The position numbers and the translations under genes are program-made. DNA of 39,023 nt. It comes from a virus. The notes under the pieces are model-generated. The model made no database searches and had not been told where the DNA came from. It saw nothing but the letters and a program-made list of their open reading frames with translations. Shown here piece after piece: positions 380 to 39,023 of this stretch. The first letter of the stretch is position 1, and each line of letters starts with the position of its first letter. The stretch spans positions 1 through 39,023 of IMG/VR virus record IMGVR_UViG_3300044701_000344; one strand, 5' to 3'.

Positions 380-916
380 TTATTTTGTCCATCCGTGGTG
401 TTTAAAGATAATTTGTACACTCTTGGCTTGGAAGTAAGCATCTGCAAGAGCATTGTGTAGATTGGTCTGCATGTCTTTGCGAGGATCCTTAGGCATACGT
501 TTGGTGATTGTTCTAGAATCATTAATCTGCCAAAACTGCCACGGAATAGGTTTGCCTACCATACGGTACATGTTTTCAAGAATAGTAATGTCAAAGCCAT
601 AGCCTTGGCCCCAAATCTCATCAACACCCACAACCCACCGATTAAGTTGTGACAATGCTTCTTCTACAGTAACAGCACCAGTCTGATCAAATGCTTCTTC
701 CATAACAGCAGGATCTTGTCGACCCCACCATTCAATAGTGCTGTCGCTTGTTGTGCGTCCAAGCCGGTCTTGATCATCTACAAGAATTTTAAGATACAGC
801 TCTGAATGTGGTTCGGCGTCAGTAGTCGGGTCAAATTTAACTGCTCCAAGACTAAGAACAGTTGCGGTAGGAAACACGTCAAGGGTTTCCAAGTCAATCA
901 TGCCATGAATGGTCAT
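380..916 (-). CDS. dexA: DEDDh 3'-5' exonuclease, DexA / Rv2179c-like
   Basis: This 178-residue protein has the DEDDh exonuclease signature: D8 and E10 in IDLET, D109 in GYGFD, and H154 with D159 in HNALADAY. The opening (MIDLETLDVFPTATVLSLGAV) and length match the T4 DexA / Rv2179c-like group, which degrades single-stranded DNA or RNA from the 3' end with two metal ions. It starts at ATG 916, overlapping the stop of the upstream 54-aa gene as ATGA, so the two are probably translated together. The likely role is nucleotide recycling or DNA processing during infection. The symbol is by similarity; substrate is not shown by sequence. Confidence 0.85.
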   Translation of the reverse strand: MTIHGMIDLETLDVFPTATVLSLGAVKFDPTTDAEPHSELYLKILVDDQDRLGRTTSDSTIEWWGRQDPAVMEEAFDQTGAVTVEEALSQLNRWVVGVDEIWGQGYGFDITILENMYRMVGKPIPWQFWQINDSRTITKRMPKDPRKDMQTNLHNALADAYFQAKSVQIIFKHHGWTK

Positions 917-3790: not shown

Positions 3791-6700
3791 TTATACGTTA
3801 AATTGATAATTTGCGAACAGTATAAACTGTTCCTGTTGAGAATTTTCTGTTCTTTTTATTATATATCTATCAATATCATAGTTTATGTTTTTTTGATCAA
3901 AGTCGCTATTTTTAATATTAGCCAGTATGTCTGCGCTGGTTCCAGGCTTACAGTAGCATACAGGTATCGCAGTCACATAGTCAAGTTCTTGGAAACCGTT
4001 TTGCGGAGTTCTCATCCACAGTGGCAAATAGTTTCTTTCTTTTTTACCTACAGTTTCTATGTTATCTCTCATATGCTCAATGCTGGATCTGTATCTCACA
4101 TTGTCTTTAGTTTGACTAACTTTGATAGCATTAGTGTCAGCTTTGATAGTGTTAGGAGGATTTGGTCTTAGACGCTGCGGCTCACTGTCACTCTTTTCAA
4201 GTGCGACACTTACGTCACTAGTATCAAACAGTTCTAATTCAAAATCTGCGTTGTCTACATTAAGATCAAAACTACCATCTCTAGTTTCTATTACTAGTTC
4301 ATCATTTTCAGCAAATATAAATCTCACATATCCGCCACGCCCGTACACAGGCAGTGCTTCATACCCTAAGCCCGTTTTGGTTTGATCATCCTTAGCAGCA
4401 TACAACAAACTATCTGCTGTGATACGATTTTGTGTATTAATCTTAAAGGTACTAGCAGTTTTTCCTCTAGAACTTTGAGCGAAGTCTTTTACTTCTATAT
4501 ATACAACTTCATATACTGTTTCATTACTGCCTGGTTCTCTAGCAATAGCAGTTTTAAACTCTCCTAGACCGTACTGTTTTCTACGATGATTTTTAGCAGC
4601 CGCAGCTACAAAGTTACCTACAGTTTTAGCTTCTATGCCAGCATAGACCAGCATGTCAAGATTTTTTTGAATACCAAACGCAGGATCGCCTAGTCTATAA
4701 ATCTTTGAAGGGTTGAATACGTCTGTGTTGCTTACAAAGTTTCTATACAATGTACGCTCTACGTCCTTGAGCATTGGTCTCATATAGATATCAGTGTACT
4801 GTACATCGTCAAGGTCTTCTACTTTTAATATAAACTCACGCTCTATAGCAGTGTATCCAAATCTATCTCTAGCTTCTGCGGTAAATCTATAGACTCTATC
4901 AAATGTAGTATCACTTGGGAATACACCGTCCCAACTTAAAGTTTTATTGTCGAATGTGGTAAGTCCTGCACCTTCATTGTCAGGAAACTGTCTAGCAAAT
5001 CCTACTATTTCACCATCATATCTCAGTGTCATGCCATTAGGCAGTTTACCACTTTTTAGAGTATAGATCATTCTAGTATCAGGTACTGTGGTCTCTGCTT
5101 CTATTTTTAGTGTACTAACAAAGTTGGCATTGATAGTGCCTAGATCCACAGGTGTAATCCAACTGATATTTGTATCAATTTCACCTATCACACGTAAATC
5201 AAATGTTTTGATAGTACTAGGTATATCAACATCGTCGCTAGTAGCTAATACTAAAGTTTCACTAAAGAAATCGTTTCTAAACAGTGCTATGCCTACATTG
5301 CGACCTTGATTCAGTTGACGTGATAGATTTCTGTCAAACTGTATTCTGTCTTCGTTATCTCTTAGCAGTGATACACGTATTTCCCCACTATCGCCAGAAG
5401 TAAGGAAGAAACTTCTAATGTTAGATATCACACGACTTCTAGCAGTGCTAGGTATTTTTATACGCCAGCGTGTGCGTTCTATAACTTCTATGTATGCTAC
5501 ACCACCATATGCTGATTCTAATGCTTGTGTTGTAGCCGTTAGTCTATCACTTAGGCTTAGTTCCTCTAGAGTTTCGGCAACCTGTGTCCAATTAGCAGTT
5601 ATAAAGTTTATTTGTATATTACCGTCTTCGTCTAGAACTAAATCACCGTCTATATCTAATTGTGGAGTAACATTGTGAGAAACAATGCATCTATAAATGA
5701 ATCCATTCCCGCCTGATTCTGTAGTATATACAACGTAGTCGCCTACAAAGTAGTTTTCATTTACCTGTATATTTTGCGGCGAACTGCTAGGATAAATCTC
5801 GTTATTAAACGGATCTGTTTGTGATATTTCATATTCAATGTATGGAGTGATACTGTCTATGGTATAAGTTTCACTTTCTTCAAAGCGAAGTATACGTTTA
5901 TTATATTTTTCTTTATCGGCTTCGTTTAGTCTTTGAACAAACATGTAGTCTTGGCCAGTAAGTGCAGTTCTGCTTAACAGTAAGCTGATATTAGGAGCAA
6001 GTGTTTGATCAAGAAATATAATGTCATAGTCAGCATTTCTACTGTCTACGTTGGTAACACGATATTGTCTGCGTCCTAACAGAATGTCTCTGCCAATCAG
6101 ATCAAATAGATCCTGTACTCCGTCTATGTTTCCAGTAAGATCTACTTTAAATATTTTAAATGATGTTTTGCCTAACAGAGTGTCTTCGTAGAAGTTGGCA
6201 AATATCTCCACAATGTCTAGATCTGTAGTTATACGTGTGGCTCTAACTGTAAACTTGTAGTCTGTAGTAATAGCAGGTTGATAGGGAATATAACCCACTA
6301 TTTCACCTGTTTGACTGTCTAGACTTAGACCGGGCGGCAGTTCGCTAGGTGATCCATCGTTGTTTACACTTTCTAGTGTAAAAGTTATTATACCCTCCAA
6401 TGTAGGATTATCTATTACATCTAGATAAAGTGTAGTATAGTTGTTAGCACGTTTAAATCCTAAATCACTAGGTGTTAACCAAGTTGGTGTACGAACATTT
6501 GTAGCATCTGCTCTAAACACACCTGTACTAGATCTCATTACAGTGTTATCTGCTTTAAGATAATCATCACCTACCACATAAATTCTAAATTCTCTGCGTA
6601 CAAAAGTGTCTCCGTCTGTAACTGTTACAGCAAAAGGATAATATCTGTTTAGCTTTCTAAAATTAATTGTTGGTTCGTTATAGTCATAATCTTGTGAGTC

Positions 6701-36583: not shown

Positions 36584-36798
36584 TACATTTCTCCCCAGTA
36601 TTCTAAAACTGCTTGAAAGTGTTCTTTAAGTTTAACATTGCGTTCATAGTCGTCAGGATGTCCTTTTTGATGTAAGACAAAATTATCCATATCTTCTACA
36701 ACACTGTTGTAATGCCATTTGATAGCATACACAGCCATACGATCGATCAGTTCACTGTTGACAGTGAAGTTTTCGGGTATGTCAAATTTTCTTTTCAT
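36583..36798 (-). CDS. 71-aa helical protein of unknown function
   Basis: ATG 36798 gives an ATGA overlap with the PTH2-like gene and a GGAG site; a start at 36813 is possible. The protein (MKRKFDIPENFTVNSELIDR...) is mostly helical with a His/Trp-containing centre and ends AVLEYWGEM. No family is recognised. It is coupled to the ligase by TAATG. Confidence 0.65.
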   Translation of the reverse strand: MKRKFDIPENFTVNSELIDRMAVYAIKWHYNSVVEDMDNFVLHQKGHPDDYERNVKLKEHFQAVLEYWGEM

Positions 36799-37187
36799 TG
36801 GTGCAGACTCCATTGCCGCATATATTCCAGTTCCGCTTCAGTGTAAGCAAACACCCACATGCAGGTAACTTCACTGCGAGTGAAAACTTCACCGTAGTAG
36901 TTGCGGTATGGATATGTAGGATCTGTAGTAAATCCCCAGTGTGTAACATTCATTGAGATCTTACCAAATGTATCCAGTGGTTCATGCAGTACTAGCGTGG
37001 TACCAAAGTGCCTATCTTCACGCCATGCTACCACAGCATCTGCAATTTCTTTGCTGATTGCAGCTTCGGGATCATCAAACATAAACATATCAAAGTCTGC
37101 TTGTGCGTGAGCAGCCTGTGCCATAGCTTTGCCTGGGTTCATATCCCACAGGTCACGCCGCATAACGATGTAAAATTTAGGTTCCAT
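36795..37187 (-). CDS. PTH2-like (peptidyl-tRNA hydrolase 2 fold) protein
   Basis: This 130-residue protein starts KFYIVMRRDLW and carries G19-K20-x-x-A23-Q24-x-x-H27-A28 (NPGKAMAQAAHAQ), the signature of archaeal/eukaryal PTH2. PTH2 releases tRNA from aborted peptides. The second half (TTLVLHEPL, VTCMWVFAYTEAELEYM) is divergent and lacks a typical PTH2 tail, so catalysis is not assured. Given the tRNA cluster next door, a role in recycling phage tRNAs is attractive but inferred. Start and stop overlap neighbours (TAATG, ATGA). Confidence 0.65.
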   Translation of the reverse strand: MEPKFYIVMRRDLWDMNPGKAMAQAAHAQADFDMFMFDDPEAAISKEIADAVVAWREDRHFGTTLVLHEPLDTFGKISMNVTHWGFTTDPTYPYRNYYGEVFTRSEVTCMWVFAYTEAELEYMRQWSLHQ

Positions 37188-37776: not shown

Positions 37777-37808
37777 AGAAAAGGCACATGCATTTCTGCA
37801 TGTGCCTT
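37777..37808 (-). terminator. intrinsic terminator of the tRNA cluster
   Basis: A 12-bp perfect stem AAGGCACATGCA / TGCATGTGCCTT (37781-37792 with 37797-37808), 4-nt loop, followed on the minus strand by TTTTCTCTT. It lies 3 bp after the last tRNA. Confidence 0.85.
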
Positions 37809-38045: not shown

Positions 38046-38064
38046 TTAATTTCTGACAACTAAC

Positions 38065-38134
38065 AAAGTGCAAAGGGACTCGAACCCCTGTCTCCGACTG
38101 CACGCCGGCGTCCTATCCTCTAGACGATACACAC
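38065..38134 (-). tRNA. tRNA-like element, anticodon uncertain
   Basis: A classic D-arm (GTCT-AGAGGATA-GGAC) and T-arm (AGGGG-TTCGAGT-CCCTT) are present. The acceptor (GTGTGTA with TGCACTT) has one T-T mismatch and no CCA. The anticodon arm has only about 4 good pairs (CCGG/TCGG) and a loop CGTGCAG with G, not T, at position 33, so TGC (Ala) is only the formal reading. An alternative 7-bp outer pairing AAAGTGC/GCACTTT would extend it to 38151. Either a decayed tRNA or a tRNA mimic. Confidence 0.5.
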
Positions 38135-38152
38135 AATTATCGCAGCACTTTT

Positions 38153-38369
38153 CTACGCTCCGGCAAGAACATCGAAGTTACTGCAACAAAAGGTCAGTTG
38201 CCAAGGCAGTTGCCGCTGCCTATTCTAATTTCTGGGCATCTCCAATTGGGACTCTTACCCCTGCATCTGAGCTGTGACTCAGACCGTGTTTCCCGATACG
38301 CCGAGTGGCCCTAAGGCGTATGCAGTATTCTCATTGTAGTAGATGTCGACCTCTTCTACAACGTTTTAT
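38153..38369 (-). other. 217-bp inter-tRNA spacer with several hairpins
   Basis: It holds no tRNA. Besides RNA 1 it has AGGCAG-TTGCCG-CTGCCT (38204-38221) and TTGTAGTAGA/TCTTCTACAA (38334-38361, one mismatch) just downstream of tRNA-Arg(ACG), plus a CAGTTGCC direct repeat. The latter may be processing hairpins. Confidence 0.5.
38261..38325 (-). ncRNA. candidate structured RNA 1 between tRNAs
   Basis: Closed by CTGCAT/ATGCAG (38261-38266 with 38320-38325). It holds hairpins TCTGAG-6nt-CTCAGA (38266-38283) and ATACGCC/GGCGTAT (38296-38302 with 38315-38321). It shares a core with segments at 38672-38695 and 38979-39010. Strand taken from the flanking tRNAs. Confidence 0.4.
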
Positions 38370-38445
38370 TGGCACTCCCGAAGGGACTCGAACCCCTAAC
38401 AATCGCCTTCGTAGGGCGGCGCTCTTCCAGTTGAGCTACGGAAGT
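38370..38445 (-). tRNA. tRNA-Arg(ACG)
   Basis: 76 nt with encoded CCA. Acceptor ACTTCCG/CGGGAGT, anticodon loop CTACGAA, T-arm AGGGG-TTCGAGT-CCCTT. The outermost anticodon-stem pair is a C-A mismatch. Needs A34 to inosine editing (TadA) to read CGC and CGA as well as CGT. Confidence 0.9.
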
Positions 38446-38450
38446 ATTTT

Positions 38451-38526
38451 TGGTACCGATTTCTGGATTCGAACCAGACCTAAAAGATCCACAATCTTTC
38501 GTGCTGACCGCTAACACTAAATCGGC
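38451..38526 (-). tRNA. tRNA-His(GTG)
   Basis: 76 nt with encoded CCA. Acceptor GCCGATT/AATCGGT (G1-T72 wobble), anticodon stem AAAGA/TCTTT, loop TTGTGGA, T-arm TCTGG/CCAGA. The discriminator is A and the base before position 1 is T, not the usual G-1:C73 pair. Confidence 0.9.
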
Positions 38527-38533
38527 ATTGTTT

Positions 38534-38608
38534 TGGTTGCCCCTACTAGATTTGAACTAGTGACCTATCCCTTATCAGGGGATTGCTCTACCACTGAGCT
38601 AAGAGGCA
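38534..38608 (-). tRNA. tRNA-Ile(GAT)
   Basis: 75 nt with encoded CCA. Acceptor TGCCTCT/AGGGGCA, D-arm GCTC/GAGC, anticodon stem ATCCC/GGGAT with loop CTGATAA, T-arm ACTAG/CTAGT. Confidence 0.93.
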
Positions 38609-38625
38609 ATATTTATTGTTTAGAA

Positions 38626-38717
38626 GATACACTAGCAGGATCCTCCCCTGCGTAGCCCCGTCAACAGGGCAACTTAGTCTCATCGTAGCATACGCCACTT
38701 CTAGTTCATAGTGTATC
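38626..38717 (-). ncRNA. candidate structured RNA 2 between tRNAs
   Basis: Closed by a perfect 9-bp stem GATACACTA/TAGTGTATC (38626-38634 with 38709-38717). Inside are GCGTA/TACGC (38650-38654 with 38691-38695), a GCAGG/CCTGC hairpin and GCCC/GGGC. 92 nt, tRNA-sized, but no T-loop or D-arm and no CCA. T4 has two small stable RNAs of unknown role in its tRNA cluster, a possible precedent. Confidence 0.5.
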
Positions 38718-38727
38718 ATCAAAACAA

Positions 38728-38803
38728 TGGTGGACCGGGTGGGATTCGAACCCACGTACTCCGATTAAAAGTCGGGTGCTAAAACCACCTCAGCTACCGG
38801 TCC
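38728..38803 (-). tRNA. tRNA-Lys(TTT)
   Basis: 76 nt with encoded CCA. Acceptor GGACCGG/CCGGTCC, anticodon loop CTTTTAA, T-arm GTGGG-TTCGAAT-CCCAC. Confidence 0.92.
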
Positions 38804-38847
38804 ACGTTTCGTTTGTCGCTTTCTTCTTTGTTACGTTTTCGTTTCAT
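38794..38847 (-). CDS. possible 17-aa basic leader peptide between tRNAs
   Basis: ATG 38847 follows AAAGGA at about 10 nt and opens MKRKRNKEESDKRNVDR, stopping inside the 5' end of tRNA-Lys. Lys and Arg codons make up more than 40 percent, next to Lys and Arg tRNA genes. It may be a chance frame. Confidence 0.25.
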   Translation of the reverse strand: MKRKRNKEESDKRNVDR

Positions 38848-38865
38848 TTTACTTTCCTTTGTTTA

Positions 38866-38952
38866 TGGTGGGGGAGGATGGATTTGCACCAACTCACCTT
38901 TTCAAGAACGGTTTTACAGACCGCCGCGACTCTCTAACTTCGCCGCTCCCCC
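38866..38952 (-). tRNA. tRNA-Tyr(GTA)
   Basis: 87 nt with encoded CCA and a long variable arm (class II). Acceptor GGGGGAG/CTCCCCC, anticodon stem GCGGT/ACCGT with loop CTGTAAA. The T-loop is TGCAAAT with G in place of the invariant T55, and the T-stem has a T-T mismatch. Confidence 0.85.
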
Positions 38953-38961
38953 TTGTTTGTT

Positions 38962-39023
38962 GTATGCCACAAGCCCACCTGTTATCCTCAAGTCGTTTCC
39001 GCATACTCTACACAGGTTGCCGG
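38962..39023 (-). ncRNA. candidate structured RNA 3 (pseudoknot), cut by window edge
   Basis: GTATGC (38962-38967) pairs with GCATAC (39001-39006), while ACCTGT (38977-38982) pairs with ACAGGT (39012-39017). The two stems cross, forming an H-type pseudoknot. It resembles RNA 1 around the GTTTCC-GATAC core. Confidence 0.35.

What the first reader, a model, noticed from the sequence alone, without database searches (positions are those of the whole stretch)
38261..39023. Family of three related structured RNAs interspersed with tRNA genes
Three segments without tRNA features (38261-38325, 38626-38717, 38962-39023) each have closed stems. They share a core that on the minus strand reads roughly GTAT(G)C-(GG-AAA)-ACGa-TGAG-(ACAG): GTATCGGGAAAC...CTGAG...ACAG, GTATGC...ACGATGAG, and GTATGCGGAAACGACTTGAG. 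RNA 3 can form a crossing pseudoknot. No known ribozyme or tmRNA motif fits. T4's two unassigned stable RNAs in its tRNA cluster are a precedent for location.
Basis: partly seen in the sequence, partly recalled or inferred. Interest (0 to 1): 0.65.

Follow-up and report, generated by a model that had tools for sequence, protein, structure and literature searches.

The report
Hidden structured RNAs among phage tRNAs
Between the tRNA genes of this virus lie at least three real, unrelated kinds of folded non-coding RNA (one a tRNA look-alike with no usable anticodon, one a conserved RNA clamp whose contents differ in nearly every phage), which may help the phage deal with host enzymes that act on tRNA; the three-member family first proposed does not exist.

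Summary
The shared core is not above chance, and a covariance model of RNA 1 finds neither RNA 2 nor RNA 3.

RNA 1 (38227-38368, minus) is a conserved ~140-nt RNA with a pseudoknot. It has at least 18 distinct members in tRNA arrays of other metagenomic phages and strong covariation.

RNA 2 (38614-38729) is a 19-bp clamp helix with two U.U mismatches, right after tRNA-Lys. The helix covaries, but its contents are hypervariable: 19 distinct inserts directly after tRNA-Lys are no more alike than shuffled sequence, while the clamps are 91% identical on average.

RNA 3 (38962-39023) runs off the contig, folds no better than shuffles and has no convincing relative: unsupported.

RNA 4 (38048-38222) combines kissing hairpins, an enclosing covarying helix, and a tRNA-like body without a real anticodon; ARAGORN calls it tRNA-Ala.

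None matches any Rfam family except the generic tRNA model on RNA 4's tRNA-like part. None of RNA 1, 2 or 4 was found in cultured phages by the searches made. The function is inferred: stable RNAs cut from the tRNA transcript, possibly tRNA mimics or decoys.

The parts
38227..38368 (-). RNA 1: conserved ~142-nt structured RNA (P1 hairpin, three-way junction P2/P3/P4, P5 hairpin, P3-loop pseudoknot)
   Evidence: CM R1 159 bits; 16-sequence alignment A1; covariation
38332..38363 (-). RNA 1 P1 hairpin (38363-38352 with 38343-38332); loop GGUCGACA contains the palindrome GUCGAC (UUCGAA in pattern-independent relatives L105, L186)
   Evidence: 7 of 11 pairs changed on both sides; loop variants
38261..38325 (-).
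38234..38311 (-). RNA 1 pseudoknot: P3-loop GGGC 38311-38308 with GCCC 38237-38234
   Evidence: pairs in all 16 sequences; variants GGGCUA/UAGCCC, UGGGAC/GUCCCA, UGGAAC/GUUCUG
38614..38729 (-). RNA 2: clamp helix with cargo. Outer stem 38729-38722/38621-38614, UGAU/UUCU with two U.U mismatches 38721-38718/38625-38622, inner stem 38717-38709/38634-38626
   Evidence: 96.5% of pair cells paired, 11 of 19 pairs changed on both sides over 24 frames; location after tRNA-Lys
38635..38708 (-). RNA 2 hypervariable cargo (74 nt here), with a T-arm-like hairpin GCAGG-GGAGGAU-CCUGC at 38651-38635 abutting the clamp
   Evidence: 26 clusters among 37 cargos; T-arm-like end in 10 of 37 vs 1.8 expected; cargo identity equals shuffled
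38048..38222 (-).
   Evidence: CM R2 106.8 bits; 32 of 52 pairs changed on both sides; per-sequence helices
38161..38215 (-). RNA 4 kissing interaction: hexaloop CGGCAA 38215-38210 with hexaloop UUGCCG 38166-38161
   Evidence: complementary in 13 of 13 sequences, CUGCAA/UUGCAG in L014 and L016
38065..38134 (-). tRNA-like body of RNA 4, called tRNA-Ala(UGC) by ARAGORN; anticodon arm is a variable hairpin
   Evidence: ARAGORN isotype calls differ between homologues: Val, Ser, Leu, Tyr, Ala, unknown
38962..39023 (-). RNA 3 segment: cut by the contig end; no support as a structured or conserved RNA
   Evidence: fold z = +0.35; no exact relative, no nhmmer hit, 16-mer scan inconclusive
37781..37808 (-). 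intrinsic terminator after the last tRNA; end of the array's transcription unit

Best explanation
The tRNA transcription unit of this tailed phage carries at least three separate non-coding RNA families besides tRNAs. Shown by comparative sequence: each folds and is conserved as RNA, lies on the same strand as the tRNAs, and usually lies within a few bases of one. Inferred: they are co-transcribed with the tRNAs and released by tRNA-type processing, which would cut at the RNA 2 clamp (an irregular double helix of RNase III-substrate type) and at the AU-rich AGAAAUU ends. They then persist as stable RNAs. RNA 4 presents a tRNA-shaped body that cannot decode, held in a kissing-loop frame. RNA 2 presents an exchangeable cargo, often ending in a T-arm-like hairpin. 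The most likely role (my estimate 0.35-0.4) is to engage host factors that recognise tRNA or small RNAs, such as tRNA-cleaving defence nucleases or processing and modification enzymes, as mimics or decoys. That would also explain the rapid turnover of the cargo. RNA 1 probably works as a folded, perhaps dimerising, RNA of still unassigned role. RNA 3 is not part of this. The stated confidence covers the anatomy and the claim of three separate RNA families in one processed unit; the decoy role carries the lower figure.
For: RNA 1: 11 of 36 pairs with changes on both sides; 96.3% of cells paired against 33-47% when slid; at least 18 distinct members, all in tRNA arrays. RNA 4: 32 of 52 pairs with changes on both sides, 93.3% paired against 38-48% when slid; kissing loops and enclosing helix complementary in 13 of 13; isotype calls inconsistent. 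RNA 2: clamp pairs covary; 19 cargos directly after tRNA-Lys, clamps 91% identical on average, cargo similarity 0.340 against 0.335 for shuffled; the same cargo appears at different places in different phages. T-arm-like cargo ends in 10 of 37 against 1.8 expected. Rfam finds only tRNA-type families in these arrays. Phage tRNAs that evade tRNA-targeting defence are documented (PMC10264068, PMC11555353), as are phage RNA decoys (PMC3475682, PMC10651486).
Against: No expression data. Cargos are not folded better than shuffles on average (z near 0), so the cargo may be a tolerated loop rather than an effector. No binding partner or target is known. The RNA 2 members were collected by a pattern on the clamp, which inflates apparent clamp conservation. 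All relatives are metagenomic contigs and no host is known.
Confidence: 0.6

Rival explanations
1. Processing elements only: the clamp and the other RNAs serve to cut the long tRNA transcript into pieces, and the cargo is a loop of no consequence that drifts or is replaced freely.
For: The clamp starts in the CCA of a tRNA and the next tRNA often follows within a few bases; a 19-bp helix with two U.U mismatches is of RNase III-substrate type; cargos are not better folded than shuffles; RNA 1 and RNA 4 often end 2-4 bases before the next tRNA.
Against: Drift should leave recognisable similarity where clamps are nearly identical, yet of 67 pairs with at least 95% identical clamps only 1 has related cargo. 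Some cargos are kept at 95-98% between different phages and places, and T-arm-like ends are enriched. Does not explain the kissing loops and tRNA-like body of RNA 4.
Confidence: 0.25
2. Remnants: RNA 2 and RNA 4 are decaying tRNA genes that lost the anticodon, kept by chance in recombining arrays.
For: tRNA-like T-arms, D-arm and acceptor in RNA 4 and in part of the RNA 2 cargos.
Against: Decaying genes do not keep compensatory base pairs: the enclosing helix and kissing loops of RNA 4 are complementary in 13 of 13 sequences with 8 of 9 helix pairs changed on both sides; even the replaced anticodon stem covaries (helix 9). Tested and found unlikely.
Confidence: 0.06
3. One reading: three related copies of one small RNA family.
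For: Short strings such as GTATGC, GGAAAC and TGAG recur.
Against: Not above chance; RNA 1 model does not hit RNA 2 or RNA 3; RNA 1 and RNA 2 each have their own separate relatives.
Confidence: 0.02
4. The RNA 2 clamp is a DNA element: an inverted-repeat recombination site (attC-like) that captures short cassettes.
For: Conserved inverted repeats around variable content; the same cargo at several places.
Against: No GTT/AAC core as in attC at the clamp ends by inspection; clamps in the tRNA-bearing arrays lie in the sense of the tRNAs; clamp variation includes 13 G.U cells against 16 non-pairs, which is mild support for RNA level only. No recombinase was sought.
Confidence: 0.07

Closest known systems
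Phage T4 rnaC and rnaD (species 1 and 2 RNAs of the tRNA cluster)
   Same: Small RNAs of unknown role inside a phage tRNA cluster; rnaC carries a T-arm-like 3' part.
   Different: Models R1 and R2 find no full-length match in the T4 tRNA region or in the whole T4 genome; no kissing-loop frame or clamp/cargo organisation was noted.
GOLLD and ROOL RNAs
   Same: Structured phage RNAs often encoded near tRNA islands, function unknown; they assemble as RNA-only homo-oligomers (PMC12286853).
   Different: Several hundred bases long; Rfam scan finds no match here. Oligomerisation of RNA 1 through its palindromic loop is only a guess.
tRNA (Rfam RF00005)
   Same: RNA 4's inner part has acceptor stem, D-arm and T-arm and passes the tRNA model (35.3 bits).
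   Different: Anticodon loop of varying size, mostly without U33; no CCA encoded; enclosed in a larger kissing-loop RNA.
RNA-based phage counter-defence: pseudo-ToxI of phage PhiTE; RNA anti-CRISPRs (Racrs)
   Same: Small phage RNAs that mimic a host defence RNA (PMC3475682, PMC10651486).
   Different: No CRISPR-repeat or other defence-RNA match to our RNAs in Rfam; mimicry here would be of tRNA and is inferred.

Membership tests
tRNA (for RNA 4) | Cloverleaf with acceptor, D- and T-arms | tested here: met
   RF00005 35.3 bits; helices 7, 8, 10 covary; the acceptor of the window copy is weak
tRNA (for RNA 4) | 7-nt anticodon loop with U33 and a consistent isotype among orthologues | tested here: not met
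   Loop sizes and sequences vary; ARAGORN gives Val, Ser, Leu, Tyr, Ala or unknown
tRNA (for RNA 4) | 3' CCA, encoded or added, and aminoacylation | not testable with these tools
   CCA is not encoded after the acceptor strand; addition and charging need experiment
Rfam families other than tRNA | Score at or above the gathering threshold | tested here: not met
   Window and ten related arrays: only tRNA and one tRNA-Sec
GOLLD / ROOL | Match to the Rfam model | tested here: not met
T4 rnaC/rnaD | Sequence-structure homology | tested here: not met
   R1 and R2 give no full-length match in T4; reverse comparison with a T4-based model not done
tmRNA | tRNA-like ends plus tag reading frame | tested here: not met
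   ARAGORN finds none; permuted tmRNA 11.8 bits, threshold 47
RNase III substrate (for the RNA 2 clamp) | Near-continuous double helix of about 20 bp | tested here: met
   8 + 2 + 9 pairs with two U.U mismatches, covarying
RNase III substrate (for the RNA 2 clamp) | Cleavage by RNase III | not testable with these tools
   needs experiment
attC / integron cassette site | GTT/AAC core sites at the ends | tested here: not met
   Clamp ends are CATTRYTT/AARYAATG by inspection; recombinase not sought

The most novel reading that the evidence does not exclude
The site after tRNA-Lys is a display slot: a conserved, processed RNA clamp into which these phages exchange unrelated short RNAs, a repertoire of RNA counter-defence effectors, many of them tRNA-like. 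Next to it, RNA 4 is a tRNA mimic without an anticodon held by kissing loops, and RNA 1 is an RNA that dimerises through a palindromic loop.
Probability: 0.28. Interest if true: 0.85.

Novelty: new variant of a known kind. Interest (0 to 1): 0.6.

Why it matters
Why phages carry large tRNA arrays is an old question, now partly answered by tRNA-targeting defences (PMC10264068, PMC11555353). These arrays also hold conserved RNAs that are not tRNAs, one of which an annotation program calls a tRNA with a different anticodon in each phage. Tallies of phage tRNAs by anticodon would therefore be wrong for such genes. The clamp with exchangeable cargo gives a simple search handle for many new small RNAs, and its fast turnover points to an arms race that can be tested directly.

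Tried and rejected
(1) The common core of three RNAs: rejected. (2) RNA 3 relatives: exact 20-mer, no hit; nhmmer over the loci held then, none; 16-mer scan gave 4 contigs, one of them (L178) in a tRNA array but sharing little beyond the 16-mer; inconclusive. (3) RNA 1 in bacterial genomes: 47 pattern matches in GTDB contigs, none recognised by the model, so chance. (4) Cultured phages: RNA 1, RNA 2, RNA 3 and the 5' part of RNA 4 find only chance-level matches; a 24-base Vibrio phage match to RNA 2 is chance; RNA 1 has none in plasmids. (5) The whole-cluster search hits only tRNAs. (6) Group I intron, known ribozymes, tmRNA: nothing above threshold in Rfam. (7) Cargos as well-folded RNAs: z-scores scatter around zero. 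(8) L085, L118 (8105) and L117 (476) clamp matches are doubtful and were left out of the pair counts; L109, L110, L113, L119 and L120 were judged chance matches and left out.

Full report
What was claimed. Three segments between tRNA genes at the right end of the window were said to be one family of related structured RNAs. Observation and interpretation were tested separately.

Setting. The window is one whole virus record of 39,023 bases. On the minus strand it carries a tRNA cluster, nine ARAGORN calls from 38952 down to 37812, followed by an intrinsic terminator at 37808-37781 and a promoter-like site for the next gene. The neighbouring proteins include an ATP-dependent DNA ligase, a phosphoesterase and a QueD-like enzyme. 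The phosphoesterase is nearest to that of Sinorhizobium phages phiM12 and phiN3 (66% identity). That suggests, but does not show, an alphaproteobacterial host.

The supposed family. The three segments are no more alike than shuffles (p = 0.83, 0.10, 0.76), and a covariance model built for RNA 1 finds nothing at RNA 2 or RNA 3. Segments 1 and 2 fold better than shuffles (z = -2.6 and -4.3); segment 3 does not (z = +0.35). Exact and 16-base searches for RNA 3 gave no convincing relative. RNA 3 is cut by the contig end, so it is unsupported rather than disproved.

RNA 1. A 20-base pattern found four other contigs; blastn and a gapped pattern found more. Sixteen distinct sequences were aligned. 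The structure has a P1 hairpin, a three-way junction P2/P3/P4, a P5 hairpin, and a pseudoknot from the P3 loop to the 3' tail. 96.3% of pair cells are standard pairs, against 33-47% with partners slid by one to three columns, and 11 of 36 pairs have changes on both sides. The pseudoknot columns are partly misaligned, so they were matched per sequence: all 16 can pair, with variants GGGCUA/UAGCCC, UGGGAC/GUCCCA and UGGAAC/GUUCUG. P4 is a quite different hairpin in several members. The model found additional members that the pattern would have missed (L115, L105, and L186 in a 342-kb contig). In L105 and L186 the loop palindrome GUCGAC is UUCGAA, both ends changed. This fits a self-kissing dimer, or simply one more closing pair in the loop. 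Every member examined lies on the tRNA strand within an array, often 2-3 bases from a tRNA. The 47 pattern matches in bacterial genomes were chance.

RNA 2. Close relatives in L003 and L034 match throughout, but L004 and L006 match only at the two ends. Pattern and mismatch searches show the reason. A clamp CATTRYTT-UGAU-GATACACTA ... TAGTGTATC-UUCU-AARYAATG holds contents that differ. The helix has 8, 2 and 9 pairs separated by two U.U mismatches. Over 24 distinct clamps 96.5% of cells pair and 11 of 19 pairs change on both sides. The clamp strands were put together with an artificial spacer for that count, and members were chosen by similarity to the clamp and by pairing of its inner stem, so its conservation is overstated; the outer stem was not selected for pairing and still covaries. 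Many clamps begin inside the CCA of a tRNA-Lys. Thirty-seven distinct cargos of 39-93 bases fall into 26 unrelated clusters. Among 19 cargos directly after tRNA-Lys the clamps are on average 91% identical while cargo similarity equals that of shuffled sequence (0.340 against 0.335). Of 67 pairs with at least 95% identical clamps, one has related cargo. Identical or near-identical cargos occur in different phages and at different places, so clamp and cargo appear to travel together. Ten of 37 cargos end in a hairpin with a 7-base loop abutting the clamp, like a tRNA T-arm, against 1.8 expected. Cargos are otherwise not better folded than shuffles.

The rest of the gap after RNA 1, together with the gene called tRNA-Ala, is one conserved RNA (38048-38222; model R2, 106.8 bits). 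A hairpin loop CGGCAA is complementary to a second hairpin loop UUGCCG (CUGCAA/UUGCAG in L014 and L016). A nine-base helix encloses the second hairpin and a tRNA-like body. All 13 sequences keep these pairings although the helix sequence changes completely. 32 of 52 pairs change on both sides. The body has acceptor, D-arm and T-arm, but the anticodon arm is a variable hairpin with a loop of varying size, and no CCA is encoded. ARAGORN calls the same element Val, Ser, Leu, Tyr, Ala or unknown in different phages. Full-length relatives exist in two further large contigs, and L095 shares the longer version seen in the window. Model R2 also gives many weaker matches to ordinary tRNAs (41 bits and below); these are not members.

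Known or new. No RNA here matches Rfam except through the tRNA model. BLAST finds no relative of RNA 1, of RNA 2 or of the 5' part of RNA 4 in 50,697 phage records. The literature searches made showed no description of these RNAs. That is a limited search of open-access papers only. By location they belong with T4 rnaC/rnaD and with GOLLD/ROOL, which also sit near phage tRNA islands (PMC12286853), but no homology was found.

How it may work. Shown: conserved RNA structures on the tRNA strand inside arrays. Inferred: one transcript, cut by host enzymes, releases tRNAs and these RNAs. Further inferred, at roughly 0.35-0.4: they engage host factors that handle tRNA. Phages are known to counter tRNA-targeting defences with their own tRNAs (PMC10264068, PMC11555353) and to use RNA mimics against ToxIN and CRISPR (PMC3475682, PMC10651486). 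The main rival is that clamp and RNAs are only processing elements.

Limits. All relatives are metagenomic contigs, some overlapping or near-identical. Model E-values are rough. Covariation counts are over sequences, not independent events. Expression, processing and partners are unknown.

Noticed in passing
window 38065-38134 (-): ARAGORN's tRNA-Ala(UGC) is the tRNA-like body of RNA 4, not an ordinary decoding tRNA; homologues are called with different anticodons.
   Followed up: yes
window 38794-38847 (-): Possible 17-aa basic peptide (MKRKRNKEESDKRNVDR) with a purine-rich upstream stretch between tRNA-Tyr and tRNA-Lys, overlapping the tRNA-Lys gene.
   Followed up: no
window 36795-37187 (-): Protein with the N-terminal motif of peptidyl-tRNA hydrolase PTH2 (22.8 bits, cut-off 23), two genes from the tRNA cluster.
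   Followed up: partly
L003 4719-4806, L004 866-947: tRNA-Arg(ACG)-like sequences in which the anticodon arm follows the acceptor strand almost directly and a D-arm-like stretch lies after it; missed by ARAGORN.
   Followed up: no
L004 about 985-1140, L084 about 390-530, L014 about 4640-4800: A further conserved long tRNA-like RNA (GAGTAG...CTTTACCAG...GCTGGTAACAC...T-arm) in the same arrays, reminiscent of T4 rnaC.
   Followed up: no
L003 about 4850-4970, L004, L014, L034: Another conserved intergenic RNA candidate (GGCTGAGTTTAGTGTTTCTCGAGATAAAC...GTTCCCACCGTGG...AACGGTGGGCCG).
   Followed up: no
L085 11028-11118 (-): Match to selenocysteine tRNA above Rfam threshold (50.6 bits, threshold 47) in a phage tRNA array.
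   Followed up: no
L178 around 611-626 (-): 16-base match to RNA 3 inside the tRNA array of a 362-kb virus contig; little similarity beyond it.
   Followed up: partly
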